Shown piece after piece: positions 7,985 to 54,602 of a stretch of 64,000 nt of DNA. The number at the start of each line of letters is the position of its first letter. Positions within the stretch are counted from its first letter, which is position 1. The translations under genes were made by a program, and so were the position numbers. A model generated the notes under the pieces. It did not search any database, was not told the DNA's origin, and was given only the letters and a program-made list of their open reading frames with translations. Source of the stretch: Heliocidaris erythrogramma. Lineage: Eukaryota; Echinodermata; Echinoidea; Camarodonta; Echinometridae. The stretch is from contig CM046863.1 in assembly GCA_025617745.1 (NCBI GenBank), positions 59,848,085 through 59,912,084 on the forward strand, given 5' to 3'.

Positions 7985-8370
7985 TAGTTTGACAAGGAAT
8001 CGGTTAATGCTTTTTATTAGAGAGTTTTAGAATGTTTCAACGTGAACGCCGTCCTAGATCCTCCCAGCTACAATGGACTGCTTTGTGTTAACTGCATACC
8101 GTGCTTTGTGCAAGAACAGCTCACACGTCCTGTGGATTCTACCTCGCCCACTAGTCAGATCGAGAACGCGTCCAACATATTGTCGTCTTCTCCAATACGT
8201 GAACTTCGCTTCACCTACTTTTGTATGCAGTTAACACAAAGCAGCCCATTGTAGCTGGGAGGATCTAGGACGGCGTTCACCTTGACACATTCGAAAACTC
8301 TCTATTAATTCGTTTTTAAAAACACGAATTAATAAAAAAAAAAACCATTAAACGATTCCTTGTCAAACTA
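7985..8370. mobile_element. Long-TIR MITE (family F), copy 1
   Basis: Nested inverted repeats define the element. The outer arms TAGTTTGACAAGGAATCG and CGATTCCTTGTCAAACTA are joined to inner arms of about 90 bp. These run from GAGAGTTTT through GTGAACGCCGTCCTAGATCC to TTAACTGCATAC and are mirrored on the right. The core holds TAGTCAGATCGAGAACGCGT and has no ORF of significance. A second copy at 27735-28375 has another element inserted in its core, so this copy supplies the empty site. Confidence 0.8.
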
Positions 8371-8382
8371 TCCCTCTTTCAG

Positions 8383-9370
8383 ACTAAAGAGTTTTCGTAT
8401 GGATATGGGACGTTTTTATGTGTCTGAATGCTCTTATACTGATACGTCGTATATCGAAACAATGCTAAAGGCATGATCGTTTCATACGATGATCCTATAT
8501 TCTTGCGACGTATAGTTGTGTATGAATGCTCTCATAACCTTACGTCGTAGAAGACGGGGCTTAAATAAACACAACGCGCAAAGTTCGTACTACGCAAGGG
8601 GGAGACTCGTACATATTCATGAGCTTCCCATGAAACCTGAAAGTGCGCGAGGTCTGAATGCTGCCATGCAATTTATATAATGGTAGGTTGTGTTGGAATG
8701 CTCTCACATCAATGCGCCGTATGAATATAGGATAACATGGTATGTCTAACATTTTTCATTAATCCATTATCTAACATAGGTCCTATAACTATACAAGTTT
8801 TAAATATATGTCCGATATGTCTATCAAGGGCAATATTGAAAAGTAGAGTTAAAATGGCATCAAATAAAGAAATATATATTAGTGTACAATGACGATAACA
8901 CACAAATATACCATAGAAATCTAAATTGAAATACAAGAATATTGGGAAGCTCTATAGCAAAAACAGGAAGCCTAATATCCTTGTTGAAAGGAATCTTACA
9001 GGCTGTGCTTGGGTGTTAACATCTAGCTGGCTATAGCTGCATAAAAACAGAAGGCAACAATATAAAACAAAATGCCACAGGCTGTTTACATGGTACGAAT
9101 GGTTCTAAATTGAAATCCAAGAATATTGGGAAGCTCTATAGCAAAAACAGGAAGCCTAATATCCTTGTTGAAAGGAATCTTACAGGCTGTGCTTGGGTGT
9201 TAACATCTAGCTGGCTATAGCTGCATAAAAACAGAAGGCAACAATATAAAACAAAATGCCACAGGCTGTTTACATGGTACGAATGGTTCTAGAAAAAATG
9301 CCCCCAGGACAATTTCCGCCTGGACTACCAGCCCCATGCAGTTACAAGATACAATCTGTGCATGAGCAGA
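8383..9370 (+). repeat. Repeat A, copy 2, with internal 187-bp tandem duplication
   Basis: The left part (8440-8760, with TTGCGACGTATAGTTGTG and ATGAGCTTCCCATGAAACC) and the right part (AGGTCCTATAACTATACA onward) match the copy at 28387-29960 closely. A block of about 187 bp, beginning TCTAAATTGAAATMCAAG and ending TGGTACGAATGGTTCTA, is present twice in a row (about 8919-9107 and 9106-9292) with almost no differences. This points to a recent slippage or unequal-exchange event. Confidence 0.8.
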
Positions 9371-9375
9371 CAATT

Positions 9376-10290
9376 TTTCTTTCTTACTGTTTCCATAGCA
9401 ACAGCCATTTTCAAACATGATAGACATTTTTTTTTATAACTCTTATTTGGTTTCTAATCAAGTGAATAACTGTTGATACATTATTCTAAAATGTTACAAT
9501 GTGTTTTTGTACTTTCTTAATCACGAATACATGACATTTTCTGAAATTCTATTGTTCTTGATCCGTTGCCATGGTAATAGCCCTTATGGTCACGCCCACC
9601 TCTTAATTTAGGGCAAATAAGCATATTTTGAGAGTTAATGGCCCATGTAACAGAACAAAACATTCATTTAAGATTATTTCTAAGGGGGTCGGGAAAATTC
9701 AGTTTTGGGCCCATAGACTATACTGATAATACATGGGATAATGGGCTTATGTACATGAACACTCCAGATGTACATTTAATACATCGTTCGATTTGGGATA
9801 ACATAAAATGAGTTAACCATCACTTTATCGGATAATTTCTTTTCTGTCTGTATACATGGTATACAATATACATGATTTGTTTAATGAAGAAAAAAAATTG
9901 ACAAATTTACGTTGGGTAAAAAATATTGGTAGTTTTCACAACCTATTATGTTGAGTAAATCACAGTTTTATGTTTCGTTACGCCATACATGTGTGTGTAA
10001 TATCCAACTTTCAATTGTATATTAATCAGGTTTATAACTTGAAACTCAAAATAAATCTGATATCACTTGAAAGTCTTAATCAGGCATTACACATTAGGTC
10101 AAAAAATTAAAAATTGTGATATTTGACATTGTTTCAAATTTTGAGGCACAAATGCGCGTGGCATCCGCCCGTACCTTATTCCTCACTATTTTGCAAGAGT
10201 ATGAGCATGGATGCCGAGCATTACCCAAAAATGCCGTCCAAAGTAAAAAACGATCTTCTTGGCTGGTCTACAATAAGCCCGCCTCACACG
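9376..10290 (+). repeat. Repeat B, copy 1 (3' part)
   Basis: Starts around TACTGTTTCCATAGCAACAG and ends in CTTCTTGGCTGGTCTACA. It is shared with 14527-15450, 38816-40180 (minus strand) and 46800-48120. Diagnostic words are CACGCCCACCTCTTAATTTA, GGCCCATAGACTATACTG and GGCATCCGCCCGTA. It contains two of the X-box-like palindromes (9389-9402 and 9565-9578). There is no protein signature. Confidence 0.8.
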
Positions 10291-10433
10291 AGGTGTCATT
10301 CGGATTGCGTGTTTACCTGAACTAATCGAAACTCCAAAGGAATTTAACCCGTAGGCCGGCTGCTAGCTATTATAAATATTGTTTGCACTGTTCATTTGTA
10401 GTACTACAGAATCGGAAAATTGCGTTGAAGAGA

Positions 10434-10503
10434 GACATACTGAAGCTTTTCGTCTTCTTGCGGTATACTCCGATGAGTGCAAGACGAAAAGCTTCAGTAT
10501 GTC
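10434..10503. other. Perfect 23-bp stem-loop, copy 1
   Basis: GACATACTGAAGCTTTTCG plus TCTT (10434-10456) is exactly complementary to 10481-10503, across a 24-nt loop. The size is compatible with a small-RNA hairpin or a MITE remnant. The second tandem copy at 15596-15665 keeps the fold with two mismatches. Confidence 0.75.
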
Positions 10504-10854
10504 ACTGTTCATTTCGCAATCATTTGAAAAACAATACCCTTCTTTAAGACGTGCAAAAAAAACATGCCACTGAAGCGGTCTTAACGTCAGGTAACGACGC
10601 CTCTTTTGAGCCAAGCTATAATGAGGCGCAGCAAAATAGAAATTACTTAAAAAGAACTCTTCGATTGATCATTGTTTTGTGTTGTTGTCTTTGTTTTTTT
10701 TAATTAATCTTGACATCAACAAAAGATTACTCTTGAAAACCGGTTGTAATTTAATACAGCGCCATCAGTCAGACCCTACTACGACTACTACTAACTCTGG
10801 TTGTTGTCGTTCGCCTGACTTGCGCCAGTTGACACTCAACCGGCTGCGCACTGG

Positions 10855-11335
10855 GGTTGGAAGCGCCATCAGTCAGACCCAACTTCGGAAAACCGAGCAA
10901 AGGCTTATACTCCGAACACAGCGTTTAGAGCAAGATGAATATAGAACCCTCATCGTTCATTGCGAGACAGTGTGTACAAAAGGCATGGGGAAAATCCTGC
11001 AATGTCAACCTGCTGTTGATAATATAAGTTTCAAAAATAATGCTGCGGATAATTATATTTATTTCAAATGTTTGTAATTTGAAAGTCATTTCATATGGCG
11101 AAACATTTACGGAATTTGAAGGTTATTGACATTCAGCATTATTTTAAAGAATATATATATATATATATATATATATATCATTGGCAGGTTGAATTTGCAA
11201 GATTTTCCCCACGCCTTTTGTACGTACTGCCTCTCACTGAACGATGAGGGTTCTATATTCATACACCGTTTTCGGAGTATATACCTGCGCTCGGTTTTCC
11301 GAAGTTGGGTTTGACTGGCGATGTTGAATCTCTTC
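10855..11335. repeat. Inverted repeat with arms of about 190 bp
   Basis: The left arm (10855-11040, containing CCCAACTTCGGAAAACCGAG, CCCTCATCGTTCA and AAAGGCATGGGGAAAATC) is mirrored by the right arm (11135-11335, GATTTTCCCCACGCCTTTTG and TGAACGATGAGGGTTC). The spacer includes a (TA)n tract at about 11147-11178. The 132-codon ORF over the left arm (10679-11077) has no recognisable domain and is probably fortuitous. The structure recurs at 16017-16480. Confidence 0.8.
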
Positions 11336-11349
11336 GATATTGTCAACAT

Positions 11350-13240
11350 ATCGGCCCGAGGACGTTCACATCAAACCATCGTTCCATAATAACATACATA
11401 TATATCTTAAGCCCGTCACACTAAGTATAAACGTCTTGCTGATTCTTGCTTGATGAAAACGTTTGTAAAAACGCGGTGGCATTTTTAAACTGACACATTT
11501 ACTATAATTATTTAGTTTTCCTTTGTTTATAAAATAATTATTTTGTATTTTTCATGTTTAATCTTAGAATGCACCAAGAAATAGTGCAATTAACGTCTTC
11601 TGTATTTGTGTTTCTATCAACAACCATTGTTCCTGTATATTTGCCTTTTGGGATTAGAAGATTTTTAACTAATTTCAAATTCCAAATCCCAACTTTCATT
11701 GGATTGTCAAAAGGTTCCATTATTTAATGATAGAGTAAAAAAAAATGTTTTAAAGATGAATAAATGAAAATGAAGTTGGTCGAGAAAAGATTGAATTTTC
11801 GATTGGGCCTATTTCAAATTCCCATATGTATAGTAATGACAACTTTCAAAAATTCATAACTTTCATATTGCTTGTCCGATTTCTTTCAAAATTACACCAA
11901 TCTGCTTTCTGATTTTTCCTCTTTTTTTAGAACAACTTGGTTAAGGTAGGATTTCCCTTTATGAAAATAATATAAACTTAATGAACTTTCAAGATTTGCA
12001 CGGTGGAAAAGTATTATAAATTGGTTAAAATGCGTATTGAGGAGACCATAATGTTAACAAGTACATGCTTTGCTCGTTTTTAAGAGCCTCGTCGTTTCAA
12101 ACAGCGTGCCCTGGGCTCGCAGTTCTTTCTTTAAACGAAATTTCCAGAACTCACGCACTACAATAAAACACAGGAGTGATTCTAAGGACCAACCTACATT
12201 TTTCCTTGAACTAGTCAAGATACAACTTGGAATGGTGCCATTACTATCACATATTTTTTTCATGATTTTGTTCCTTCATTTATAACACATAACCCTGTGG
12301 AGGGCTCCAAGCCCATCTATTCCCCTTCAGTCCCCAATTCATTGAGAGTAAATGCGCTGGTGTAAGCTATTTCAGGGTTATGTCAAATGAAATCATGAAC
12401 TTTTTCTATATCAATATTATATTAAAGTAATGTACATTTTATTCAAATGTTTGACTGAAGTTCACGGTTTTGAATATATCACTGGCATTGTATATATTCA
12501 CACTAAAGGCCATTGTTTCAATTTAGTTTTTAATTATTCAATGAGAAATAAATGTGAAAGTTCGAGTCACCCCAAGACAAAAGGTTAACTTGAATATCTT
12601 GCCTGGATTAAAGTAATGCAGGAAACTGATATAACAACAATCAGAACTGAAACATTTTGGGTTTTTTTTTTCTCTCTCTCTCTTGATTCATTTCTAGGGG
12701 TATACCGGATGAAGCAATCTGGTAAACATGTTCATCTGGGTTACTACACTGGGCCACAGGAAATAACTAAACTATAGATATAAAACATAACTCAGTTAAT
12801 CATATATATGAAATGAAAAATCACCCTGGGTAAAAAAAATCCCAGGCAAGATAGCATAAAGAAGCGATACAGTGAACTGAAAGTACAGATATATTTGACC
12901 GTATTCTGGGCAAATTTAAACATGACCCTGGATATAAAGTCAATTTTTTTTAACAATGGAAGTTAGAGGTCTACGTTTTCCTTTCCTTAAACATGCTTTT
13001 ACACTGGGCGTCGGGTTAAGCTCAATTAGAATGGCGTTAAGAGCTCCCTTTTTCAGGCCAAAATCAGCATTTTGATATGCATTTATTTTAAAATACGGGT
13101 TTTTTCTGGAGCCCCTCCACCCCCCCCCCCCCCCCCAGCAGAAGTACAGTTTCAAACATACTCAGAGCGGTGTGCAAATCCAGCAAATGCAGAGCCCGAA
13201 TTTGCCTGGAGAAAAATGGGGTCCCCTCGCTAGTCATCAG
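11350..13240. repeat. Tandem-unit sequence with dispersed relatives elsewhere
   Basis: No gene was recognised. Parts have diverged relatives: 11430-11560 (TGCTTGATGAAAACGT, TTTTCCTTTG) resembles 32990-33175, and 12215-12340 (GGAATGGTGCCATKACTATCA, TTTGTTCCTTCATT) resembles 52960-53085. So the tandem-duplicated unit contains an old dispersed repeat rather than unique DNA. A C run lies near 13122-13137. Confidence 0.55.
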
Positions 13241-13242
13241 GA

Positions 13243-13672
13243 CCGCTATTCATAATGGAGAAAAGGCTCATTATTCATAAGATTCATTATTCATAAGGAC
13301 TAATATTCATAATACGAGAAGAGCGTCGCATTCATACTACGGAAAGAGGGTCGCTATTCATAATAGGAGAAGAGGATCGCTATTTATAATACGGAGAGAG
13401 GTCGCTATTCATAGTAGGAGAAAAAAGGTTGATATTCACAATAGGAGAAGAGGGCGATATTCATACTAATAAATGAGGGTCGCTATTCATAATATTAGAA
13501 AGGGTCAATATTCATAATACGAAATGAGGGTCGCGATTCATAATACAGAAAAGAGGGTCGCTATTCATAATCGAAGAAGAGCGTCTTTAGTCATAATGCA
13601 AAATGAAGGTAACTATTCATAATACAGAAAGAGAGTCGCTATTCATAATTGAAGAAGATGGTCGCTTTTCAT
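13243..13672 (+). repeat. 26-bp minisatellite GCTATTCATAATACGAGA, long allele
   Basis: About 17 imperfect units of 25-27 bp follow the pattern GCTATTCATAATA, then RGAGAAGAGGGTC. The second tandem copy (18410-18687) has about 11 units. The missing block is the six units between the ACTAATAAATGAGGGTC unit and the last ATTGAAGAAGATGGTC unit. This is a length variant of a VNTR within one assembly. Confidence 0.85.
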
Positions 13673-13828
13673 TAAAAAAAAATTAAATAAGCAAACAAAA
13701 TGATAATATTGGATGGGGACACCTTACGGATGTGTCATAGCTAAGGGGGGGGGGGGGGTCGAATAAATAAAGAAAACAAGTGTGCCCCAATAATTTACGC
13801 GACCTATAACCCCGGCCACCACCAGACC

Positions 13829-14118
13829 ACCAGTAATTTGGCAGAACAAATTATAGCGCTTAAAAATAACAATATATAACGAAAATCGATTATATAAAAG
13901 AATTGATTCTTAAACTTCTATATTACACATTCATTTACTTACATCATTGGGCATGTATCAAAATTTACACAAAATCAATAGCATCGCTGCAGGAACGAAA
14001 ACTTCCCAACACAGGAAATTTAGCAGCACGCCTTGACAGTGCCCTTACTTGGGCAAACTATTTTTTTTTACTATTAAACCCTCGCTTATGACGTCAGACT
14101 CAAGGGTTCACACCCGAC
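13829..14118. other. Spacer between the two tandem copies
   Basis: 290 bp lacking obvious homology to the end of the right copy. It contains TTATGACGTCAGACTC, which has a CRE-like TGACGTCA octamer, just before the right copy starts. No gene seen. Confidence 0.5.
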
Positions 14119-14526
14119 AGGTCCTATAACTATACAAGTTTTAAATATATGTCTATCAAGGGCAATGATGAAAAGTAGAGTTAAAATGACATCAAATAAA
14201 GAAATATATATTAAAGTAAAATGACGATTACACACAAATATACCATAGAAATCTAAATTGAAATCCAAGAATATCTGAAAGTTCTATAGCAAAAACAGGA
14301 AGCCTAATATCCTTGTTGAAAGGAATCTTACAGGCTGTGCCTGGGTGTTAACATCTAGCTGGCTATAGCTGCATAAAAACAGAAGGCAACAATATAAAAC
14401 AAAATGCTACTGGATGTATACATGGTACGGATGGTTCTAGGACAAGTGCCCCTGGACAATTTCCCCCTGGACTACCAGCCCCATGCAGCTACAAGATACA
14501 ATCTGTGCATGAGGAGACAATTTTTT

Positions 14527-15450
14527 TTCTTACTGTTTCCATAGCAACAGCCATTTTCAAACATGATAGACATTTTTTTATAACTGTTATTTGGGTTCTA
14601 ATCAAGTGAATAATTGTTGATACCTTATTCTAAAATGTTACAATTTGTTTTTGTACTTTCTTAATCACGAATACATGACATCTTCTAAAATTCTATTGTT
14701 CTTGATCTGTTGCCATGATAATAACCCTTATGATCACGCCCACCTCTTAATTTAGGGCAAATAAGCATATTTTGAGAGTTAATGGTCCCATCTAACAGAA
14801 CAAAACATTCATTTAAGATGATTTCTAAGGGGGTGGGGACATTTCAGATTTGGGCCCATAGACTATACTGATAATACATGGGATAATGGGCTTATGTACA
14901 TGAACACTCTAGATGTACCTTTCATAGTGTTTTTCATTCGCATCCACTAAAAATTCATCATTCGATTTGGGATAACATAAAATGAGTTATCCATCACCTT
15001 ATCGGATAATTTCTTTTCTGTGTGTGACATGACAATATACATGATAATGTTTAATCAAGAAAAACGTTTAAATTGACAAATTTACGTTGGGTAAAAAACT
15101 TTTAAATATTGGTAGTTTTCACAACCTATTATGTTGAGTAAATCACAGTTTTGTGTTTCGTTACACCATACATGTGTGTGTAATATCCAACTTTCAATTG
15201 TATATTAATCAGGTTTATAACTGATATCACTTGAAAGTCTTAATCAGGTATTACACATTAGGTCCAAAAATAAAAAAATTGTGATATTTGACATTCTTTC
15301 AAATTTTGAGGCAAAAATGCGCGTGGCATTCGCCCGTACCTTATTCCTCAGTATTTTGCAAGAGTATGAGCATGGATGCCGAGCATTACCCAAAAATGCC
15401 GTAAAAAGTAAAAAAAGATCTTCTTGGCTGGTCTACAATAAGCCCGCCTC
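14527..15450 (+). repeat. Repeat B, copy 2 (3' part)
   Basis: Same sequence as 9376-10290, in the right tandem copy. It has X-box-like palindromes at 14535-14548 and 14709-14722, 174 bp apart. Confidence 0.8.
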
Positions 15451-15595
15451 ACACAAGGTGTCAGTCTGATTTCGTGTTTACCTGAATTAATCGAAACTCC
15501 AAAGGAATTTAACCCGTAGGCCGGCTAGCTATTAAAAATATTGTTTGCACTGTTCATTTGTAGTACTACAGAATTGGAAAATGATGTTGAAGAGA

Positions 15596-15665
15596 GACAT
15601 AATGAAGCTTTTCGTCTTCTTGCGGTATACTCCGATGAGTGCAAGACGAACAGCTTCAGTATGTC
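15596..15665. other. 23-bp stem-loop, copy 2 (two mismatches)
   Basis: Same hairpin as 10434-10503, with GACATAATGAAGC on the 5' side and GACGAACAGCTTC on the 3' side. The two substitutions are not compensated by changes on the opposite arm. Confidence 0.7.
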
Positions 15666-16016
15666 ACTGTTCATTTCGCAATCATTTTAAAAACAATACC
15701 CTTCTTTAAGACGTGCACAAAACCATGCCACTGAAGCGGTCTTAACGTCAGGTAACGACGCCTCTTTTGAGCCAAGCTATAATGAGGCGCAGCAAAATAG
15801 AAATTACTTAAAAAGAACTCTTCGATTGATCATTGTTTTGTGTTGTTTTCTTTGTTTTTTTCATTAATCTTGACATCAACAGAAGATTACTCTTGAAAAC
15901 CGGTTGTAATTTAATACAGCGCCATCAGTCAGACCCTACTACGACTACTACTAACTCTGGTTGTTGTCGTTCGCCTGACTTGCGCCAGTTGACACTCAAC
16001 CGGCTGCGCACTGGGG

Positions 16017-16480
16017 TTGGAAGCGCCATCAGTCAGACCCAACTTCGGAAAACAGAGCACAGGCTTATACTCCGAAAACGGTGTTTAGAGCAAGATGAAT
16101 ATAGAGCCCTCATCGTTCATTGCGAGACAGTGTGTACAAAAGGCATGGGGAAAATCCTGCAATGTCAACCTGCTGTTGATAATATAAGTTTGCAAAAAAT
16201 GCTGGGGATATATTTATTTCAAATGTTTGTAATTTGAAAGTCATTTCATATGGCGAAACATTTACGGAATTTGAAGGTTATTGACACTCAGCATTTTTTT
16301 AAAGAATATATAATTATATATATCATTGGCAGGTTGAATTTGCAAGATTTTCCCCACGCCTTTTGTACGTACTGCCTCTCACTGAACGATGAGGGTTCTA
16401 TATTCATACGCCGTTTTCGGAGTATATACCTGTGCTCGGTTTTCCGAAGTTGGGTTTGACTGGCGATGTTGAATCTCTTC
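16017..16480. repeat. Inverted repeat with arms of about 190 bp, copy 2
   Basis: Counterpart of 10855-11335, with a shorter AT spacer (ATATATAATTATATATATC). The arms keep the GGTTTTCCGAAGTTGGG and AAAGGCATGGGGAAAATC blocks. Confidence 0.8.
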
Positions 16481-18409
16481 GATATTGTCAACATATCGGC
16501 CCGAGGACGTTCACATCAAACCATCGTTCCATAATAACATACATATATATCTTAAGCCCGTCACACTAAGTATAAACGTCTTGCTGATTCTTGCTTGATG
16601 AAAACGTTTGTAAAAACGCGGTGGCATTTTTAAACTGACACATTTACTATAATTATTTAGTTTTCCTTTGTTTATAAAATAATTATTTTGTATTTTTCAT
16701 GTTTAATCTTAGAATGCACCAAGAAATAGTGCAATTAACGTCTTCTGTATTTGTGTTTCTATCAACAACCATTGTTCCTGTATATTTGTCTTTTGGGATT
16801 AGAAGATTTTTAACTAATTTCAAATTCCAAATCCCAACTTTCATTGGATTGTCAAAAGGTTCCATTATTTAATGATAGAGTAAAAAAAAAATGTTTTAAA
16901 GATGAATAAATGAAAATGAAGTTGGTCGAGAAAAGATTAAATTTTCGATTGGGCCTATTTCAAATTCCCATATGTATAGTAATGACAACTTTCAAAAATT
17001 CATAACTTTCATATTGCTTTTCCGATTTCTTTCAAACTTACACCAATCTGCTTTCTGATTTTTCCTCTTTTTTTTTAAACAACTTGACATTAAGGTAGGA
17101 TTTCCCTTAATGAAAATAATATAAACTCAATGAACTTTCAAGATTTGCACGGTGGAAAAGTATTATAAATTGGTTAAAATGCGTAAATGTATTGAGGAGA
17201 CCATAATGTTAACAACATGCTTTGCTCGTTTTTAAGAGCCTCGTCGTTTCAAACAGCGTGCCCTGGGCTCGCAGTTCTTTCTTTAAACGAAATTTCTAGA
17301 ACTCACGCACTACCATAAAACACAAGAGTGATTCTAAGAACCAACCTACATTTTTCCTTCGCAAATATTTTGTGGTATGAACTAGTCAAGATACAACTTG
17401 GAATGGTGCCATTACTATCACATATTTTTTTCATGATTTTGTTCCTTCATTTATAACACATAACCCTGTGGAGGGCTCCAAGCCCACCTATTCCCCTTCA
17501 GTCCCCAATTCATTGAGAGTAAATGCGCTTGTGTAAGCTATTTCAGGGTTATGTCAAATGAAATCATGAACTTTTTCTATATCAATATTATATTAAAGTA
17601 ATGTACATTTTATTCAAGTGTTTGACTGAAGTTCATGGTTTTGAATATATCACCGGCATTGTATATATTCACACTAAAGGCCATTGTTTCAATTTAGTTT
17701 TTAATAATTCAATGAGAAATAAATGTGAAAGTTCGAGTCACCCCAGGACAAAAGGTTAACTTGAATATCGTGCCTGGATTAAAGTAATGCAGGAAACTGA
17801 TATAACAACAATCAGAACTGAAACATTTTGGGGTTTTTTTCTCTCTCTCTCTCTTGATTCATTTCTAAGGGTATACCGGATGAAGCAATCTGGTAAACAT
17901 GTTCATCTGGGTTACTACACTGGGCCACAGGAAATAACTAAACTATAGATATAAAACATAACTCAGTTAATCATATATATGAAATGAGAAATCACCCTGG
18001 GTAAAAAAATCCCAGGCAAGATAGCATAAAGAAGCGATACAGTGAACTGAAAGTACAGATATATTTGACCGTATTCTGGGCAAATTTAAACATGACCCTG
18101 GATATAAAGTCAATTTTTTTAACAATGGAAGTTAGAGGTCTACGTTTTCCTTTCCTTAAACATGCTTTTACACTGGGCGTCGGGTTAAGCTCAATTAGAA
18201 TTGCGTTAAGAGCTCCCCTTTTCAGGCCAAAATCACCATTTTGATATGCATTTATTTTAAAATACGGGTTTTTTCTGGAGCCCCTTCCCCCCCCCCCCCC
18301 CCCGGCAGAAGTACAGTTTCAAACATACTCAGAGCGGTGTGCAAGTCCAGCAAATGCAGAGCCCGAATTTGCCTGGAGAAAAATGGGGTCCCCTCGCTAG
18401 TCATCAGGA

Positions 18410-18687
18410 CCGCTATTCATAATGGAGAAAAGGCTCATTATTCATAAGATTCATTATTCATAAGGACTAATATTCATAATACGAGAAGAGCGTCGCATTC
18501 ATACTACGGAAAGAGGGTCGCTATTCATAATAGGAGAAGAGGATCGCTATTTATAATACGGAAAGAGGGTCGCTATTCGTAGTAGGAGAAGAAGGTTGAT
18601 ATTCATAATATAGGAGAAGAGGGCGATATTCATACTGATAAATGAGGGTCGCTATTCATAATTGAAGAAGATGGTCGCTTTTCATTT
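18410..18687 (+). repeat. 26-bp minisatellite, short allele
   Basis: About 11 units of the GCTATTCATAAT family. It is colinear with the first and last units of the 13243-13672 array but lacks six interior units. It ends in the same TTCATTTAAAAAAA sequence. Confidence 0.85.
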
Positions 18688-18854
18688 AAAAAAATGGGAT
18701 GGAACAAATAAAGAAAACAAGTTTGCCCCAACAATGTACGCGACCTATAACCCCGGCCACCACCAGACCCCCCCCCCCCCCCCATCAGTGCGACAGCCCT
18801 GCACCATTCGACCGACTTTGCCTTGTATGGGGCGCCAAGTGTTCACCGACTTAT

Positions 18855-20085: not shown

Positions 20086-20101
20086 GCCCCAAACGGGGAA
20101 C

Positions 20102-20533
20102 CGACATTTGCTCCGGCGGCAATTGCTCCTGCGACAAATGCTCCTAAAAATACGACAATTGCTCCGCGACAATTGCTCCGCGATAATTGCTCCTGCGACA
20201 ATTGCTCCGTCGACATTTGCTCCTGCGATAATTGCTCCGGCGACATTTGCTCCTGCGACAATTGCTCCGACGACATTTGCTCCTGCGACAATTGCTCCGT
20301 CGACAATTGCTCCGTCGACATTTGCTCCGTCGACATTTGCTCCGATCGAGCGACAATTGCTCTGCGACAACTGCTCCGTCGATAGAAATGCATATATGCG
20401 ACAATTGCTCCGTCGACATTTGCTCCGATCGAGCGACAACGGCTCCGTCGACAGAAATGCTTATATGCGACAATTGCTCCTGCGACAATTGCTCCGTCAA
20501 CATTTGCTCCGATCGAGCGACAAATGCTCGTCC
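20102..20533 (+). repeat. Left arm: array of 15-bp units
   Basis: About 25 units plus breaks. The period of 15 bp equals five codons, so all frames stay open and give peptides repeating DNCSC, ATIAP or RQLLR. These are not genes. Interruptions such as GATAGAAATGCATATATGCG recur and match interruptions in the right arm. Confidence 0.9.
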
Positions 20534-21800
20534 ATATCACTTTCATGGTGGGTAGCAACTGCCCCTCCCCCCCCCCCCCCCACCACAGGATCTTCGACGC
20601 ACCTGCTTCATTTCTTTATCTATCTTTCTTTTTGACTTCTTCCTTGCCCTTTTCTTTCTTTCTTCCTTCATATTTTCTTCCACATGCACAGCCGAATGCA
20701 TACCGACACGGGCATTGTAGTACTAGTACCAACGGCAAGTTTTGAGGGGGAGGACACATCCACAAGTCCCCCCCCCCCCCTCCCATACGCCACTGGACTC
20801 CACGTACATAGGCCTTTGCATGTTTTTATTTTGATTGTTCTTTTACTTTATCATGGTTTATATATTTCCTTTCACTGCCATACGTTTGACGTTTGCTCTG
20901 ATTCTTGTTTCTGTGTGTGTGTTTTTTTTAATAGTTTTGTTCTTAATAAGCCGACACCAGCTCAGCGCGGCAGGAGCCGGGGAGCTGGTTCCAGGCATAA
21001 TTATGACCAGCTTAGAGAGAGAAAAAGAAAGCTGTACAGTTTAGTCAATATTTGTTTGTTTTTGTTTGCAAGGCGTTTGTCAGCTCCACGCTGAGGGAGA
21101 CCCGGGAGCGAACACTTAATACCCCGCTTGACCAGTTTAAAAAGTTGAACTTGGCAACCCAGAATGATTGTCGTACTTTTGTATTACTGGTATAAATTAT
21201 TCTATCTTTCACGTTTGTATTATTTTTGTTTATATATATATATATATATTTAAACCATGCAGTTCTGCATCGGGGAGTCAGGGAGCTAGAGGCATTATTA
21301 TGATATTTTCTGTTTGATAGAGTACTGCCATATTAATAAGTATAATACATGTATATGTCAATTTGTTTTGTTTGCGAGGCATTATGCAAGCTCCACGTGG
21401 CGGGAGGCCCGGGAGCGAACACTTAATTCCACCAATTCCCCATATTTTGGGCGTATATTCCCTTCCCCTCACTATTACAATATTAAATTGAACCGATGAA
21501 CTTTAGCAATTCGCAACAACCCACATACAGGACTGGCTTGTTTTCCCCACCAGCAAGTGTCATGACTAGTAAAAATGCCCAAGATAAAAAAAGAGAGAGA
21601 GAGAGAGAGGGGGGGGGGGGGGGGGGGGGGACAAAATAATAAAACATATAGATGAATAATTAATAGGTATAGGCAAAATCACAAGGGAAAGTGGTAGAAA
21701 AAATCTTTAAAAAGGTTTATTTCCAAATCCCGAAACACCAACAACAGCTATTGTTCTGAATTCGTTGTGTTCGCTTTTGATGAGGATTTTATATAAGGTT
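20534..21800. other. Loop of the foldback element, with an internal direct duplication
   Basis: Two blocks are related. One, about 20938-21116, contains TTTGTTTGCAAGGCGTTTG, CAGCTCCACG and CCCGGGAGCGAACACTTAAT. The other, about 21240-21445, contains TTTGTTTGCGAGGCATTATG, AGCTCCACG and CCCGGGAGCGAACACTTAAT. C runs near 20568 and 20769 and a long G run near 21609-21630 are also present. A 136-codon plus-strand frame (20684-21094) has no recognisable domain. The loop is probably cargo or remnant sequence. Confidence 0.6.
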
Positions 21801-22614
21801 GTCCTTGGAGCAATTGTCACATACATAAGCATTAACGACGACCGACGGAACAGATGTCGGCGGACAAGTTGTCGCATGAGCAATTGTTGCGGAGCAATGA
21901 TATTGTCACATATTCATTTTATTTGACGGAGCTAATGTCGCGAAGGAATTGTCGCTCGAATGAAACAAATGTCGGCGGATCGAGTGCTTTCCGCCGGAGC
22001 TAATGTCGCCGGACCAAAAGTCGATGGAGCAATTGTCGAGGAGCAAATATTTATTTCTATTTACTGAGTTTATTGTCGCGGAGCAATTGTCGCATATTCA
22101 TTTTTATCGGCGGAGCAATTGTCGCATATATTCATTATTATCGACGGAGCAGTTGTCGCGGAGTAGGTAATTGTCGCTCGATCGGAGCAAATGTCGACAA
22201 AACAATTGTTGCAGAAACAATTGTCGCAATTGTCTCATATATTCATTTTATCGAAGGAGCAATTGTCGCTCGATCGGAGCAAATGTCGACGGAGCAATTG
22301 TCGCAGGAGCAATTGTCGCATATATGCATTTTTATCGACGGAGCAGTTGTCGCGGAGCAATTGTCGCTCGATCGGAGCAAATGTCGACGGAGCAATTGTC
22401 GCAGGAGCAAATGTCGACGGAGCAATTGTCGCAGGAGCAAATGTCGACGGAGCAATTGTCGCAGGAGCAAATGTCGTCGGAGCAATTATCGCAGGAGCAA
22501 ATGTCGACGGAGCAATTGTCGCAGGAGCAATTATCGCGGAGCAATTGTCGCGGAGCAATTGTCGTATTTTTAGGAGCATTTGTCGCAGGAGCAATTGCCG
22601 CCGGAGCAAATGTC
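21801..22614 (-). repeat. Right arm: array of 15-bp units, reverse orientation
   Basis: GGAGCAATTGTCGCA-type units run from about 21801 to 22614. The part nearest the loop (21801-22070) is more diverged and irregular. The outer part (22250-22614) is regular and mirrors the left arm. The arm is about 814 bp against 432 bp on the left, so unit number has drifted. Confidence 0.9.
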
Positions 22615-22631
22615 ATACATTCGCCCCAAAC

Positions 22632-22869: not shown

Positions 22870-24180
22870 ATTAATCCATGTTCTAACACAGGTCCTATAA
22901 CTATACAAATGTTAAAATGGCATTAAGTCGATATATAAATATTCAAGTACAAAGACGTTACACAACCATACCATAGAAAGTGCAACTACAATCTCAGAAG
23001 ATTGGGTAGCTTTATAGCAAAAACAGGAACCCATACATCCTCTTTGAAACAAGCTCACAGAATGTGCCTGAGGATTAACAGCTATCTGGCTATAGCTGCA
23101 ACAATACTAAACTGCTATAGGCAACTCCAGTTAGGAGATACAATCTGCGCATGAGCAGACAAAAGGTCATTTGTACCAAAGTATAAAACAAACTGAGAAA
23201 CAAATAACAGCTAAGTGATCATCAGAGATCTGGGTTTTTTATTATCAACAATGCATTTCATGGTACACAGGTGGATTTTTTTTTCAAAAAAAGAAAGGGT
23301 TAAACCGGGGAACAGAGATATAAATGAAGCATCTCCATCATTTTAGGAGTTGCTAAGGTGGAACCGCTTCACGTTTAAAAGATCTGAATCATTAGGGTCT
23401 TTGGTACCACCTTAATTACAAACTGTTTTATTATCCATAGACATTATTTGTCTAGATAACTAATCGGGATTTTGTCGTAGATGTCATTTCCTGCTTTCTC
23501 GGAAGCGAGTCTTAATATCTGCCCATTATGATTCAAAGAGCAAATGTAAAACTGTACAAGTGTGGTAGATGCATGTTGGAAAGAGTTTTTATGAACATTG
23601 TTCATCCTTCCCAAACTAGAGCTTTAAAACGTTCATCAGTGATACGGACAAGGGCAAAATAACGCACATTTTTAACATATTGCTGAAAACAGGTTTATCA
23701 TAATTGTTATGTCATGCTTGTTCCATGACATTTGCTCCTGTGACAATTGTTCCCGTCTATCCTTGCCATGCCTAATCCTAAGCATAAAACTAACCCTAGC
23801 CCTTATCTTAACCCTAATCCTAATCTTAAAGATAAATATGAGTTCTGGTCATGATATGATTGCAGGGCCTTCAGTGAGAACAGTATATAATACTGATAAG
23901 GCTACCCTGGGTAAAAGAAGACAAACTAACATAATAAGAATGACAAAGCTCACAAATTATGTTTTACCTTCCCAGAACTCAAGCTTCCTTTTAATCTCCA
24001 CATTGTCCTTAACAACAAAAACAAATTATGACCTTGACCTTAACCTTGACCTTTCGAGACATGGACGGAGGACCAAGTGTCGCAGGAGCAAATACCGTGT
24101 CACCGCTGAGCTACAATCATGACTACGTACTAACCGGCTGAGCTGACATAGTGCGTTGCCCTCAAACCGTACCTGATATA
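22870..24180 (+). repeat. Repeat A, copy 3 in 5'-to-3' extent, interrupted
   Basis: Matches 29465-30740 over most of its length. Shared words are AGGTCCTATAACTATACA, TCAACAATGCATTTCATG, GGGTCTTTGGTACCAC and CATTATGATT, with GTTGAAAACAGGTTTAT on one side and GACTACRTACTAACCGGC on the other. It is interrupted at about 23722-24100 by a small element with foldback-type ends. Confidence 0.7.
23722..24100. mobile_element. Small foldback-related insert with telomere-like core
   Basis: The left end carries GACATTTGCTCCTGTGACAA and the right end carries its inverted counterpart TGTCGCAGGAGCAAATAC. These are the same 15-bp unit as in the 20095-22622 arms. Just inside the left end lies a tract of CCTAAT, CTAACCCTA and TTAACCCTAATCC words (about 23764-23830), like a degenerate interstitial CCCTAA repeat. 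It interrupts repeat A, since the matching copy at 30520-30720 has different sequence at this point. Exact boundaries and target duplication are unclear. Confidence 0.55.
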
Positions 24181-33179: not shown

Positions 33180-36100
33180 CATAAACACTGGCATAAGACA
33201 TAAGTAACAATACAAGAACGAAAAAAGTAACAAACAAATAACATAGGATTACACAAAATAGCAGGCAAGTTTGGTATTTAAGTGGATTGATAGTTCAGAA
33301 GGTAATTTTTGTATTTTCTTTTAAAAGATTGCAGCGAAGGACATTGTTTTAATACTGATGGCATATTGTTCCACACAGTCGGTCCATTATAACTTACAAC
33401 TGTTCTAGAGAAACTGTAACGGTAGAAGGGGATGTATAATTTATTGGCGTTTCTTGTTGAATATTTGCTTATATTACTATTATAAATAAAATAATTATTG
33501 AATATATTAGGCAAAATATTTCTATGATAAGAAAACATAAATGATGCAATTTGAAAAGTGTATAAATCATAAATCTTCAGAATTTTCAACTTTAAGAATA
33601 ATCTGTATGAGCCAAGTATGACGAATTAGTAATAACTCGTAGTGCCCGCTTTTGTAATCGAAAAAGTTGTCGCATTAAGTAAATTGCACAGTTACCCCAT
33701 ATAATATTGCAATAACTGGTGTGGTAATATCATAGTATTATATAATTTGACAAGAATGCGCAAAGGTAAATCACTTTTCAGTCTGTTCAGGATTCCAATA
33801 AACTTAGAAATATTATTTGTGATGTGATTTACATGTTCTTTCCAACTCAGATTTTCATCGATAATTACACCTAAAAATTTCGTAAACGGCACCTTTTTAA
33901 TTTCAGTATCATTAATATACAATTTTATTGTGTTGTCTTCGACTTTCTTATTTTTGGTTTTAAAAATCATTAAAGAAGTTTTATTGACGTTTATTTGAAG
34001 CCTATTATATAGCTAGAAGCCATTGCTTTATTTCATTCATTTCATTATTTAAAGTATCATTTAATTGGATAGGATCCTTCCCAGATAAAAATAGACTTGT
34101 ATCATCGGCGAATAATGTGGCAGATAAAACGTCACTGACATATACTGAATGTCGTTGATATACAATAAAAAAAGCAGAGGCCCTAAATTGGATCCTCAGA
34201 CTGTGAATAAATTTTATTAATACAAACATACTGTTTTCGGTTGCTTAAATAACTAATTATCCATTTTAATACTTTTCCTCTAATTCCATACGAAGATAAC
34301 TTGTCTACTAAGATATCATGATTAATACAATCGAACGCATTTGATAAATCTAAAAATATCCCTACTGTTCTGTTTTTATCTTCAAATGCTTTAGCAATTT
34401 TTTCTGTAAAATCAATCAAAGCATGAACAGTATACAAATGATGCACAGGTCTGAGTGCGTCGGTAGGAATTGTGTGCATAAGGTAACTATGGAATGTTTA
34501 ACCCACGAGGCGCAGCCGAGTGGGTTTAGACCAGTTTCCATAGTTACCGCATGCACACTATTCCTACCGACACACGAAAAAACATGTGCATCATCTGTTT
34601 TATAGAACAGTAGACAAATTCTTGCCAAAAATTCATTTTTTTTAAATCATTACCAGTGCATGGCAAATTTACCGGATGCATGAAAAATTTACCGGATGCA
34701 TAATAAAGAAAAAACCCTTATACAAGGGCATGCTACAGGCTTGAACTGGTAAATCACTTTTATGCATCATAAATAGATTTTACGAATTTAATAAGTTCAA
34801 TAGAGAACTGAAAATGTGGCTATTTTAGGTTAAATTTCAGAATTTCATTTTTCTACAAGTGTTAAGAGTCTTGACCCGAAGCTAACTAATGTCAATTATT
34901 TTTTTTAAATTTAGATCCGAGTTAAATAAGAATCCACGACAGTCAACAACTAGCCTAAGTTAGATCTAATCTAGTATCTAGCCTATTTACATGACATGAA
35001 TTAATTTTATCAATCAATTTGAAGAATTCATACAATGCTTCTGAGAACTTCAAGTGAAAGTCTTGCCGTCATATTCACTTTTCAGTCAGGCCAGTCAGTG
35101 TCGCTGCACAGTGAATGTAACCGATGCAAATGGATGCAGCGGCCAGCGTACAGCCTGTGACTGTAACGCAGTAGTGGCACTGCACTGCACTACACTGTGT
35201 GATGTGAGCGAGATGTGTTCATTTTAAGTTTTAACATTGAAGTTTTTCATTCTATCGCTGTATCTGGGTTTTTTTTTGTTTTTTTTGATCGGGTATAAAT
35301 TTAATCGGATCATATTGGGCTTACCATAAAAATCCGAAGTCAATAAAAATTAACATCTAATCTTGTCTCATTTTCTTGCAATTCTCCGTCTGTAAACAGT
35401 CAAATATCGTAGCTCTCTCGCACTCGCATTTTAGAAGGATATCGTTTTGATCTCGCTATCGATAGCGCATATCGCGGCTTAATTCATGCATCCAGTACAA
35501 ATTGATCAATGCCTCTCAACCAATCAGATTGCAGGGATTTCTGGACCCGTTCTATAATACTGTATACCTGTCTAAAACCAAATTGCTTACTGTATAATAT
35601 GTTATATTTAGATATAAAAGAAATTAGTTTATCATATACAATTTTTTCAAATATTTTACTGAATACTGATAATATGGATATTGGCCTATAATTCGTCACT
35701 AATGCTTTATTACCACCTTTAAAAACAGGAATTACTTGTGCATTTTTTAATGAGTTTGGAAAAACACCCCTTTCAAGGGACAGATTAATAATATTGCACA
35801 AAGGAGTTACTATTGCATTGATGGAATATTTAACCGCTTTAACACTAATGTCATCGTAACCTGCACTTTTATCTACATCCAATTTAGAAACTATATCACA
35901 AACCAATGCCTTTGATACTGGTGTAAAATACATTGACTGGCAAACGTTGTTCCACAAGTATTTCTTGAAATCTTCTTTTCCTGAGTGGTTACTACTAGCT
36001 TCATGAATTTGAGACCCAATGGTACTAAAATACGTATTAAAAATATTGACAATTTCATGTTTATTTTCAATTACCTCTCCATTATTTTCAATTTTATAAT

Positions 36101-37060
36101 CATCTGTTCTATTGTTATTTTTTGTTAAAATATTATTAATTATTTTCCATGTTGCTTTAGCATTGTATTTTACATTATCAAATTTATGGTCATAGAATTC
36201 ACGCTTCTTCTGACGGATAAAATTATGAACAACATTTCTATGTCTTTTATAAACATTTTCTCTATAAGAAGTAGGATTCTTTAAAAACTTCTTATACAGA
36301 ATATATTTACGTTTACACATCTTTTTTACTTCATATGAAAGCCAAGGCTTATCTATAACACTCCCTTTTTTTCTCACATTAATAGTTGGAAAACTCTTAT
36401 CGTATAATTGGGTATATACTTCCCAAAATTTGTCGTATCTTTCATGAACACTATCTATGTAATTCAAGAATTCCCAGTCAATAAACTGTAAATTTATACA
36501 AAAATCTTTAATGCTTTCATCATCAAATTTTCTTCTGGTGTAATGTACATTTGAGCCGTTAGGAAATAAATTTGATTTAATTACTATGAAGGGAGTAAAA
36601 TGGTCACTAACATCTGTTGTAACTACACCAGATTTTAAGACTTTTTCGGAATGATTATAAAATATATTATCCAATATGGTTGCGGAATGACTGGTTATCC
36701 TTGTGGGTTTATGTATTTGGGGAGTATAATAAAAGGTAACAAAGGTATTGAAAAAGTCATATGTGTGAGAGGTAGAATCTATGTGCATCAAATCAACATT
36801 AAAATCACCCATGACAATACACTCTTTTTTTTTTGTTAGAAATCTTGCTTAAAGGTAATTGTAAAATATCATTAAAATCTTTCAATGATTGACTCGGAGG
36901 TCTGTAAATGACACCAATAACATAAATTTTTGATCCACAGTACACTTCAATAAATAAACTCTCAATGTAATTATTAAAAATATCTAGATGAAGTCTCCTT
37001 ACAAAGTTCAAACATTTACTTACATACATGCCAACTCCTCCCCTTATTCTAAGATGATAC
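33180..37060 (-). mobile_element. LINE (CR1/jockey group), 5'-truncated and interrupted
   Basis: On the minus strand the order is: the end of an APE-type endonuclease (GVIYRPPSQS, then MGDFNVDL and TILDNIFYNH) and a linker (PWLSYEVKKMCKRKYILY). Reverse transcriptase follows with TNYRPISILSVFSKIFEK, FGFR, FLDLSNAFDCINHDIL, LFADDTSLFLSG and KFLGVIIDENLSWKEHV, and then the C-terminal NGPTVWNNMPSVLK. At least four frame changes separate these blocks (near 36830, 34200, 34000 and 33650), so it is dead. The 5' end starts within the endonuclease at GGVGMYVSK, so the first part of ORF2 and all of ORF1 are missing. A 1.1-kb element is inserted between FGFR and the TVHALIDF block. Confidence 0.9.
34436..35561. 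mobile_element. 1.1-kb insert in the LINE, with a compound hairpin at one end
   Basis: The insert splits the reverse transcriptase frame. GTATAC occurs at both junctions (34430-34435 and 35562-35567), and the 8-bp flanks CAGTATAC and CTGTATAC differ at one base, so they may be a target duplication. The left 155 bp fold back on themselves: arms 34440-34495 and 34535-34592 around an inner AACCCAC/GTGGGTT stem. TATAGAAC words occur near both ends in opposite orientation. There is no coding content. The superfamily is unknown. Confidence 0.65.
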
Positions 37061-40288: not shown

Positions 40289-40874
40289 AGGCCAAGTCCA
40301 CCCAGATAATGAGTTGAGTTGAATCAGTAGAGTTAAATTAAATAAACGGAACAGTAAACCAATATCAAAATCGGATAAAAATAAGAAATTTACGGCATTT
40401 TGAAGTTTTGCATTGTTTCGTAAAACAGTGATATGAATAACATGGGCTGTATGCAAATTAGTGATCCGATGATGTCATGAGCTCACTTTTCCTTTTGTAT
40501 TTTATTATATGAAATTTCAAATATTTCATTTTTTTCATAGATGTTTATAAAGATGCTCTTCATTGTATCACAATAAGTTATACTAATGATGATCGTACAC
40601 ATTCTACGAGGAGTCAAACTTTGTTTTACATTCAGAAAACTGAAATATTTGAAATTTCATATAATAAAATACAAAAGGAAAAGTGAGCTTATGGCATTAT
40701 CGGCTCAATAATTTGCATACAGCCCATGTTATACATATCATTGTTTCATGAAACAATGCAAAACATTAAAATGCCATAAATGTCTTGTTTTTTCCGATTT
40801 TGATGAATTTTAACCTTTTTTTGTTTAATTTAATTTGATTGATTTAACTCAATTTTGGGGGGTGAACTTGGCCT
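40289..40874. mobile_element. TTAA-flanked long-TIR element (piggyBac/Kolobok type)
   Basis: TTAA (40285-40288) then AGGCCAAGTCCACCC; GGGTGAACTTGGCCT then TTAA (40875-40878). The inverted arms extend inward for roughly 250 bp with gaps, for example GCTCACTTTTCCTTTTGTAT mirrored by TACAAAAGGAAAAGTGAGC. The four-base TTAA target duplication fits piggyBac or Kolobok. The 586-bp element is non-coding and therefore non-autonomous. Confidence 0.85.
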
Positions 40875-50771: not shown

Positions 50772-50876
50772 TTATGACAAATGATGATGAATTCTTGGTT
50801 GGTGTTCGGGATCTTCGTCGATCTCCTGCTTGATATTGAGTCCACGGCCATGACGGGGAACCCTCGTGTATGCCAT
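50772..50876 (-). CDS. Short exon-like ORF, left arm (34 aa)
   Basis: Inverted copy of the ORF at 51450-51575. It starts MAYTRVPRHGRGLNIKQEID, then EDPEHQPRIHHHLS. Compared with the other arm there are three amino-acid changes and one silent change within the shared codons, and then a frameshift ends the ORF early. Confidence 0.35.
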   Translation of the reverse strand: MAYTRVPRHGRGLNIKQEIDEDPEHQPRIHHHLS

Positions 50877-51449
50877 CTTACCCGGAATTCAGGCGGGGGA
50901 TTACTGTGATGTTTTCTCGTAAATGCTGAAAAAATATTTTTTTTTGTTGTATGTAGTTGAAGAGCTGACGACTTATTTATTTACCTAAACTGGGCCAGCC
51001 CTCATCTGTAATCCTTTACATTAGGGGGTTTATTACACTAGTGATCACATGAAAGTGGAGATGGTTATTAATTTATTGAGGTGGTTTTGGTGAAGTTGTG
51101 GAGGTAGGCTTAATTTAGTACTGGGTTTGATGGAAGAGGATATAGCTATATGCCCAGTAATCCTCCAATTGGCAAGAATCCTACCTCGGATATAAAAAAA
51201 CAGGTTTGAGATATAGAATTTCTATAAAAATAGAGCGGAGGTACTATAAAGCTATGCACCTACTACACTAGGCCTAGTGTACCGGCTAGTAATGCCGTCA
51301 ATTGCTGTTGTGGTCAAATGGGTAAGGCTTAACACTAACAGAGGCCCGTAAATAAGTCGTCAGCTCTTCAACTACATAAACAAAAATTTATATTTTTCAG
51401 CATTTACGAGCAAACATCACAGTTATCCCCCGCCTGAATTCCGGGGAAG

Positions 51450-51575
51450 ATGGCAAACACGAGGGTTCCCCGTCATGGCCGTGGACTCAGTATCAAGCAG
51501 GAGATAGACGAAGATCCCGAAAACCAACCAAGAATTCATCATCATTTTGTCATCATTTTAAGCTCGAATGAATAA
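51450..51575 (+). CDS. Short exon-like ORF, right arm (41 aa)
   Basis: The sequence GAAGATGG gives a strong start context. The peptide runs MANTRVPRHGRGLSIKQEID, then EDPENQPR and IHHHFVIILSSNE. IKQE fits the sumoylation consensus (hydrophobic-K-x-E), which is common near the N-terminus of nuclear proteins. The inverted copy keeps the frame over the first 32 residues. The stretch is much more GC-rich than its flanks. I think it is a captured first-exon fragment, but it could be fortuitous. No splice partner was identified. Confidence 0.35.
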   Translation: MANTRVPRHGRGLSIKQEIDEDPENQPRIHHHFVIILSSNE

Positions 51576-54179: not shown

Positions 54180-54602
54180 GAAAGAAAACTGCTGAAAGCG
54201 TTTGTAATGCATTGTGACCAATTTTATTTTTTTACACTCAAATTTTCGGCGCTCCCTGACGTCTTCTTCAGGAGAACAATAAATGATAAGGTATCATACA
54301 AATAATTGAAATAGTTGTAGTAATGACGGGCGCACATTACTCTTTTCTGATCTACATAATTATATCCATCATTTTTTTGTAAAGCGCGCGCGTCCTCAGT
54401 CAGATCTCCCAGAGAGACGATTTCTAAGCAACCTATATCTGACTGCGGATGCGCGCGCTAGAACTATAACTATTTCAATTATTTGTATGATACCTTATCA
54501 TTTATTGTTCTCCTGAAGAAGACGCCAGGGAGCGCCGAAAATTTGAGTGTAAAAATAAAATTGGCCACAATGCATTACAAACGCTTTTAGCAGTTTTCTT
54601 TC
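54180..54602. mobile_element. Palindromic element in a TA microsatellite, arms of about 140 bp
   Basis: The left arm (54180-54320) and right arm (54463-54602) are close reverse complements. They begin GAAAGAAAACTGCTGAAAGC and contain TTTTCGGCGCTCCCTGACG and GGTATCATACAAATAATTG. (AT)n tracts lie on both outer sides (to 54179, and 54640-54674). The loop is rich in GCGCGC words. Each arm, read outward, contains CTGAAGAAGACG, then CGCCGAAAA, similar to a degenerate CUGANGA/GAAA arrangement. Confidence 0.8.

What the first reader, a model, noticed from the sequence alone, without database searches (positions are those of the whole stretch)
20086..22631. Foldback transposon with 15-bp-unit arms and a 9-bp target duplication
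Two arrays of CGACAATTGCTCCGT-type units in opposite orientation share the same order of unit variants and enclose a 1.27-kb loop. GCCCCAAAC is repeated exactly on both outer sides. This matches my memory of sea urchin TU elements, which is the main reason to call the organism an echinoid. The exact 15-bp (five-codon) period keeps every frame open and mimics repetitive proteins. The arms differ in length (about 432 and 814 bp), so units expand and contract independently.
Basis: partly seen in the sequence, partly recalled or inferred. Interest (0 to 1): 0.85.

Follow-up and report, generated by a model that had tools for sequence, protein, structure and literature searches.

The report
Sea urchin foldback jumping gene
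This is a real, recently mobile DNA transposon of a sea urchin, with long mirror-image arms built from a 15-letter repeat and two different outermost tips; it belongs to a known kind, and the enzyme that moves it was not found.

Summary
In detail: two inverted 15-bp arrays (325 nt, 97%), an exact 9-bp GCCCCAAAC on both outer sides, and unit order far beyond chance. A bindin gene points to an echinoid. The element is one of roughly 250 copies (260 and 247 ends) of a young family: 0.6-1.3% loop substitutions against the five longest relatives. Paralogous empty sites with one target copy exist for sister elements, not tested for the window locus. New: the true ends are two different 8-bp caps, GGGGAACC and GAATGTAT; 80 of 81 head-out pairs on contigs 1-9 carry one of each. 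Target duplications are mostly 8 bp, sometimes 9, once 11. The window copy is an internal-deletion derivative of a ~5-kb core; no transposase was found. The design matches published Mutator-like foldbacks (Tm1, Muta5), but TSD sequence preference looks hAT- or P-like, and no MULE, hAT or P match on contigs 1-9 lies within 15 kb of a listed end. TU identity is plausible but untested by sequence. A new family of a known kind, with one testable oddity: strictly mixed ends.

The parts
20086..20094 (.). left target site duplication GCCCCAAAC (9 bp)
   Evidence: sequence; TSD pattern of the family
20095..20102 (+). G cap GGGGAACC, the left end of the element
   Evidence: exact in 26 of the 28 complete copies (exceptions L017, L035; caps listed); 247 genome ends at <=3 mismatches
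20103..20529 (+). left arm (G arm): 15-bp units CGACAATTGCTCCGT and variants, some 14, 20, 21 bp or longer
20530..21800 (.). loop; part of a ~5-kb core shared by sister copies; its 152-aa frame 20636-21094 has no Pfam match
21801..22614 (-). right arm (A arm): same units inverted, outer part regular, inner part degenerate
22615..22622 (-). A cap (GAATGTAT on the minus strand), the right end of the element
   Evidence: exact in 27 of the 28 complete copies (exception L016); 260 genome ends at <=3 mismatches
22623..22631 (.). right target site duplication GCCCCAAAC

Best explanation
Window 20095-22622 is a non-autonomous foldback DNA transposon of an echinoid, moved by cut and paste in trans by a DDE-type transposase that binds the 15-bp units in the arms and cuts at the two 8-bp caps; integration staggers by 8, 9 or occasionally 11 bp. 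Shown: dispersed family, fixed ends, target duplications, paralogous empty sites, shared core with internal deletions, recent spread. Inferred: cut and paste, unit = binding site, trans-mobilisation. My best guess for the enzyme is a Mutator-like (MULE) transposase, about 50%, ahead of a P-type (25%) or hAT-type (15%) enzyme. The confidence given is for the transposon reading, not for the enzyme.
For: Ends: 260 A and 247 G at <=3 mismatches, 0 for the reversed control. On contigs 1-9, 80 of 81 head-out pairs of exact ends have one cap of each kind, median length 3649 bp. Of 28 complete copies 21 have an exact TSD, 5 one mismatch, 2 none; random flanks give an exact 8-11 bp match in 1 of 3000. 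Empty paralogous sites with one target copy: L015 (8 bp), L026 (8 bp, paralogue with substitutions), L040 (9 bp), weaker L032, L046/L036 (11 bp). Loop substitutions 0.6-1.3% between the window copy and the five longest alignments. Varying TSD length and an 8-bp terminal motif with 15-bp subterminal repeats match Muta5 (PMC5225508 passages); asymmetric outer motifs match Tm1 (PMC3169594 passages).
Against: No transposase seen in a copy, though only two core ORFs and two insert ORFs were scanned with Pfam. The 14 MULE matches on contigs 1-9 lie no nearer than 60 kb to a listed end. The 16 exact distinct 8-bp TSDs prefer T at 2 and A at 7 (22 of 32 positions, p 1e-5, motif chosen after seeing the data), as in hAT Hermes (PMC2803484 passages), whereas the abstract of the Muta1 paper and the Tm1 passages report no preference; the five 9-bp TSDs do not follow the motif (T at 2 in 1 of 5). 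A P-type transposase with eight 869-aa open frames of equal score is present. The loop indels are more numerous than substitutions suggest (median identity with gaps 97.7% in 13 copies).
Confidence: 0.85

Rival explanations
1. Mobilised by a P-superfamily element of the same genome, as in the Drosophila foldback Galileo.
For: 29 PF21787 matches, nine of equal top score, eight of these with 869-aa open frames, which suggests a young P family. The oriented 8-bp TSDs read RTnnnnAY, which fits the P target consensus as I recall it. Galileo is a P-type element with long arms that can hold tandem repeats (PMC3573991 passages).
Against: None of 19 P matches on contigs 1-9 within 15 kb of a listed end. 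9- and 11-bp TSDs are unusual for P (recalled); Galileo has 7. The ends of the P copies could not be read.
Confidence: 0.22
2. Mobilised by a hAT transposase.
For: Dominant 8-bp TSD with T at 2 and A at 7, the Hermes rule nTnnnnAn (PMC2803484 passages); 76 hAT matches in the genome.
Against: 9-bp and 11-bp TSDs; 0 of 45 hAT matches on contigs 1-9 within 15 kb of a listed end; caps do not resemble hAT ends (recalled).
Confidence: 0.13
3. Not a transposon but a minisatellite that formed an inverted duplication, the 9-bp repeat being chance.
For: Arms are tandem arrays and could arise by slippage; L025 is a 2.6-kb-arm palindrome including flanks.
Against: Fixed caps at about 250 dispersed places, TSDs and empty sites.
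Confidence: 0.01

Closest known systems
TU elements of Strongylocentrotus purpuratus (Liebermann et al. 1983; title seen in the reference list of PMC4079207; content recalled)
   Same: echinoid host, long inverted arms with 15-bp tandem units, shared core with deletions plus copies with other middles or insertions, 8-bp TSD in most copies (TU details recalled)
   Different: unit sequence and ends could not be compared; window copy has a 9-bp TSD; I do not recall caps of different sequence for TU
Tm1 of Meloidogyne, Phantom-type MULE (PMC3169594, passages)
   Same: asymmetric 7-bp motifs outside the inverted repeat, generally one of each kind per element; 13-15 bp tandem units, unequal arms; TSD 8-10 bp
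   Different: other sequences; Tm1 has a transposase class and mostly 9-bp TSDs without consensus; here mostly 8 bp with a preference
Muta1 and Muta5 of Aedes aegypti, MULEs (PMC5225508, abstract and passages)
   Same: 8- or 9-bp TSDs; Muta5 has nine 15-bp subterminal repeats and an 8-bp terminal motif; hundreds of non-autonomous derivatives
   Different: transposase known and, for Muta1, active in yeast; the terminal motif is not described as different at the two ends in the passages read
Galileo of Drosophila, P superfamily (PMC3573991, passages)
   Same: long arms with internal tandem repeats whose number differs between the two arms
   Different: 7-bp TSD, known P transposase; matching ends (recalled)

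Membership tests
Foldback-type DNA transposon (structural class) | long inverted arms made of tandem short repeats around a loop | tested here: met
Foldback-type DNA transposon (structural class) | target duplication and empty sites | tested here: met
   for sister copies; the window locus itself had no empty site to compare
TU elements | echinoid host | tested here: met
   bindin PF02084, two matches, best E 2e-68; specificity of bindin recalled; species not determined
TU elements | 15-bp units in an outer arm domain and 8-bp TSD (recalled) | tested here: met
   15-bp period; 8 bp in most sister copies, 9 bp in the window copy
TU elements | unit and end sequence identical or related to TU1 | not testable with these tools
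   both TU papers not held
MULE (Tm1/Muta type) | TSD of variable length, 8-11 bp | tested here: met
   8, 9 and 11 bp
MULE (Tm1/Muta type) | MULE transposase inside a family member | tested here: inconclusive
   none among the four loop or insert ORFs scanned; 0 of 14 MULE matches on C1-C9 near a listed end; the other 17 of 31 lie on contigs without a complete end list; 8 of 31 loci were scanned for units
hAT superfamily | constant 8-bp TSD (recalled) | tested here: not met
   exact 9-bp and 11-bp TSDs with empty sites
P superfamily / Galileo | P transposase inside a family member | tested here: inconclusive
   0 of 19 P matches on C1-C9 within 15 kb of a listed end; P ends not read

The most novel reading that the evidence does not exclude
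The family obeys a mixed-ends rule: only one G cap with one A cap can be paired and moved, so the two ends are functionally distinct signals although everything inside them is an inverted repeat, comparable in logic to the 12/23 rule of RAG recombination.
Probability: 0.15. Interest if true: 0.6.

Novelty: new member of a known kind. Interest (0 to 1): 0.42.

Why it matters
Sea urchin foldback elements have been known since 1983, and my searches listed no paper that, by title and abstract start, names the enzyme that moves them; the library lacks most subscription papers. A chromosome-scale echinoid genome with roughly 250 young, cleanly bounded copies, defined ends and empty sites makes that question testable. 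The mixed caps show that the element is polar although its arms fold back, which bears on how foldback arms arise and are kept.

Tried and rejected
Minisatellite or chance: rejected by the family, TSDs and empty sites. Transposase in the loop: one search listed up to six frames of at least 70 aa for the core and for each private insert; of the loop and insert frames, two core frames (one of them read from the window) and two insert frames were scanned, with no transposase match; the L040 insert gave only weak ALKBH8_N (0.008) and Viral_P18 (0.07) matches. The inserts in L037 and L040 look like 3' ends of LINEs by eye only. MULE locus L047 lies beside a ~0.9-kb relic with unit-like 15-mers in inverse orientation, but the relic does not enclose the ORF; I treat it as coincidence, since the window too has such a relic at 23.7-24.1 kb. 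The 11.4-kb L046/L036 interval first looked like one long element; it is a 3.6-kb element plus a 7.8-kb tandem duplication, and it stands as the longest of the 81 pairs. Those pairs are not all separate insertions: L041 and L042 share flanks. Unpaired: 26 of 188 exact ends on C1-C9, some because the partner cap has mismatches (L017). Rows dropped: L025 (palindrome); L013, L022, L028, L036, L038, L039 for lack of a clean pair in the stretch; from the motif count the five one-mismatch copies L010, L030, L031, L042, L044 (L042 also a duplicate of L041) and L033, L043 (no TSD); L016 was counted there as 9 bp because its A cap has lost a base, while one search lists it as 8. One search, with looser end placement, gave other tallies for 29 copies (14 exact 8, 5 exact 9, 3 exact 7, 4 and 1 with one mismatch, 2 poor).

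Full report
The thing itself. Window 20095-22622 (2528 bp) is bounded by an exact 9-bp repeat GCCCCAAAC. From the left it has the 8-bp cap GGGGAACC, an array of 15-bp units (20103-20529), a loop (to about 21800), the array again in inverse orientation (21801-22614), and the cap ATACATTC, i.e. GAATGTAT read inwards from the right end. The arms agree at 314 of 325 positions without gaps, and unit order matters: score 303 against at most 238 in 2000 shuffles.

The host. The window lies in a 1.064-Gb assembly of 26 contigs. A bindin gene (two matches, best E 2e-68) points to an echinoid; that bindin is an echinoderm protein is recalled, and the 14 control genomes (0 matches) seem to be prokaryotes, so they do not test it. 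The species was not determined.

The family. A 20-mer of the array occurs 1058 + 1012 times in the genome, its reversed control never. The A end (cap plus 27 bp, up to 3 mismatches) occurs 134 + 126 times and the G end 124 + 123 times, controls 0. Each listing shows 100 places; on contigs 1-9 they give 96 A and 92 G ends, all exact. 81 head-out pairs lie within 12 kb: 41 A-G, 39 G-A, 1 A-A, 0 G-G. The A-A pair is L025, a 99.6% palindrome that includes its flanks, so it is an inverted duplication or an assembly artefact rather than an insertion with two A ends. 26 of the 188 ends have no exact partner within 12 kb. The longest pair is an element plus a tandem duplication, and at least one insertion is counted twice through duplicated flanks (L041, L042).

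Insertion. For 28 complete copies read with fixed caps, 17 have an exact 8-bp TSD, 4 an exact 9-bp TSD, 5 one mismatch and 2 none; one of the 8s (L016) reads as 9 if a base lost from its cap is allowed for. Random flanks match exactly over 8-11 bp in 1 of 3000 draws. Four copies inserted into local repeats that still contain the uninterrupted target with one TSD copy: L015, L026 (paralogue with substitutions in the target), L040 (9 bp exact) and, more weakly, L032. A fifth, L046/L036, has an 11-bp TSD: its left flank maps to a repeat unit ending at 681 and its right flank to the same stretch from 671, an overlap of 11 bp. These results place the element ends at the caps, not at the arrays. No empty site was found for the window copy.

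Anatomy of the family. The longest shared structure is L012 without a private insert, about 4.95 kb; the other 27 copies compared are mostly internal deletions of it, several with inserts found in one or two copies, one (L029) with a 2.2-kb unrelated middle. The window copy keeps the arms and the parts matching L012 2751-3760 and 4835-5888. Loop substitutions are 0.6-1.3% between the window copy and the five longest alignments; with gaps the median identity is 97.7% in 13 copies, so the spread is recent. Of 56 arms, 47 are closest to a same-side arm and 9 to an opposite-side arm of another copy, so the sides have partly separate histories, although mean scores hardly differ; that no arm is closest to its own partner says little, as about one is expected. 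A variant G end, GGGGAACCAACATTTGCTCCA, appears at 7 of the places listed (list cut), and the diverged copy L022 keeps an exact A cap, so the caps outlast some changes in the array; with so young a family the sameness of the caps is otherwise no proof of selection.

How it works. Shown: dispersal, fixed ends, target duplication, empty sites. Inferred from the known biology of foldback and MULE elements: transposase binds the units, cuts at the caps, and inserts with a stagger of 8-11 bp; copies are moved in trans. Which transposase is open. For MULE: TSD length varies, and Tm1 and Muta5 share the terminal motif plus 14-15-bp repeats (passages); Tm1 also has different motifs at its two ends. 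For hAT or P: 16 exact distinct 8-bp TSDs, oriented, read RTnnnnAY (T at 2 in 12 of 16, A at 7 in 10 of 16; pooled p 1e-5, motif picked after inspection); the five 9-bp ones do not follow it. In the genome 31 MULE, 76 hAT and 29 P matches were found, counts that the tool calls lower bounds; of those on contigs 1-9, 0 of 14, 0 of 45 and 0 of 19 lie within 15 kb of a listed end. The P family shows the largest set of long open frames of equal score (eight of 869 aa); MULE has three of 861 aa with equal score.

Verdict on novelty. A new family of a known kind. The mixing of caps has a precedent in Tm1, where one motif is generally at each end; here it is nearly absolute. It may be simple descent from one polar master or a pairing rule; the data do not decide.

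Noticed in passing
window 23722-24100: A short (~380 bp) degenerate relative: two 15-bp-spaced units in plus orientation at 23726 and 23741 and two in minus at 24081 and 24096, about 1.1 kb from the main element.
   Followed up: partly
window about 8700-18700: A ~5.15-kb tandem duplication (94-99% alike in many stretches) that includes a 26-bp minisatellite in each copy; parts of it recur inverted near 39 kb and direct near 47 kb.
   Followed up: no
window 35484-36848, minus strand: 454-aa open frame with endonuclease and reverse transcriptase matches, probably a LINE fragment.
   Followed up: no
window 50779-51547, 40377-40792, 54224-54560, 8014-8308: Four further close inverted-repeat pairs (90-95% complementary), MITE-like.
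   Followed up: no
L038 1045-7069 (with L045): A family member interrupts a Tc1-like transposase ORF (Pfam match upstream; downstream part by eye), a datable nested insertion.
   Followed up: partly
L046/L036 (C2:30.56 Mb): 7.8-kb tandem duplication with one breakpoint in the element's loop, leaving two A ends for one G end.
   Followed up: partly
L025 (C5:10.68 Mb): 2.6-kb-arm palindrome, 99.6% alike, that contains an element and its flank.
   Followed up: partly
G000 C1:78463571, C3:8273743, C3:47690009, C7:17676387, C8:46532096, C9:45771606, C16:40936546, C17:9191324: Eight P-superfamily transposase genes with 869-aa open frames of identical score: probably a recently active P element in an echinoid.
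   Followed up: no
L033 and L043: Complete elements with both caps but no convincing target duplication, as expected after recombination between copies.
   Followed up: no
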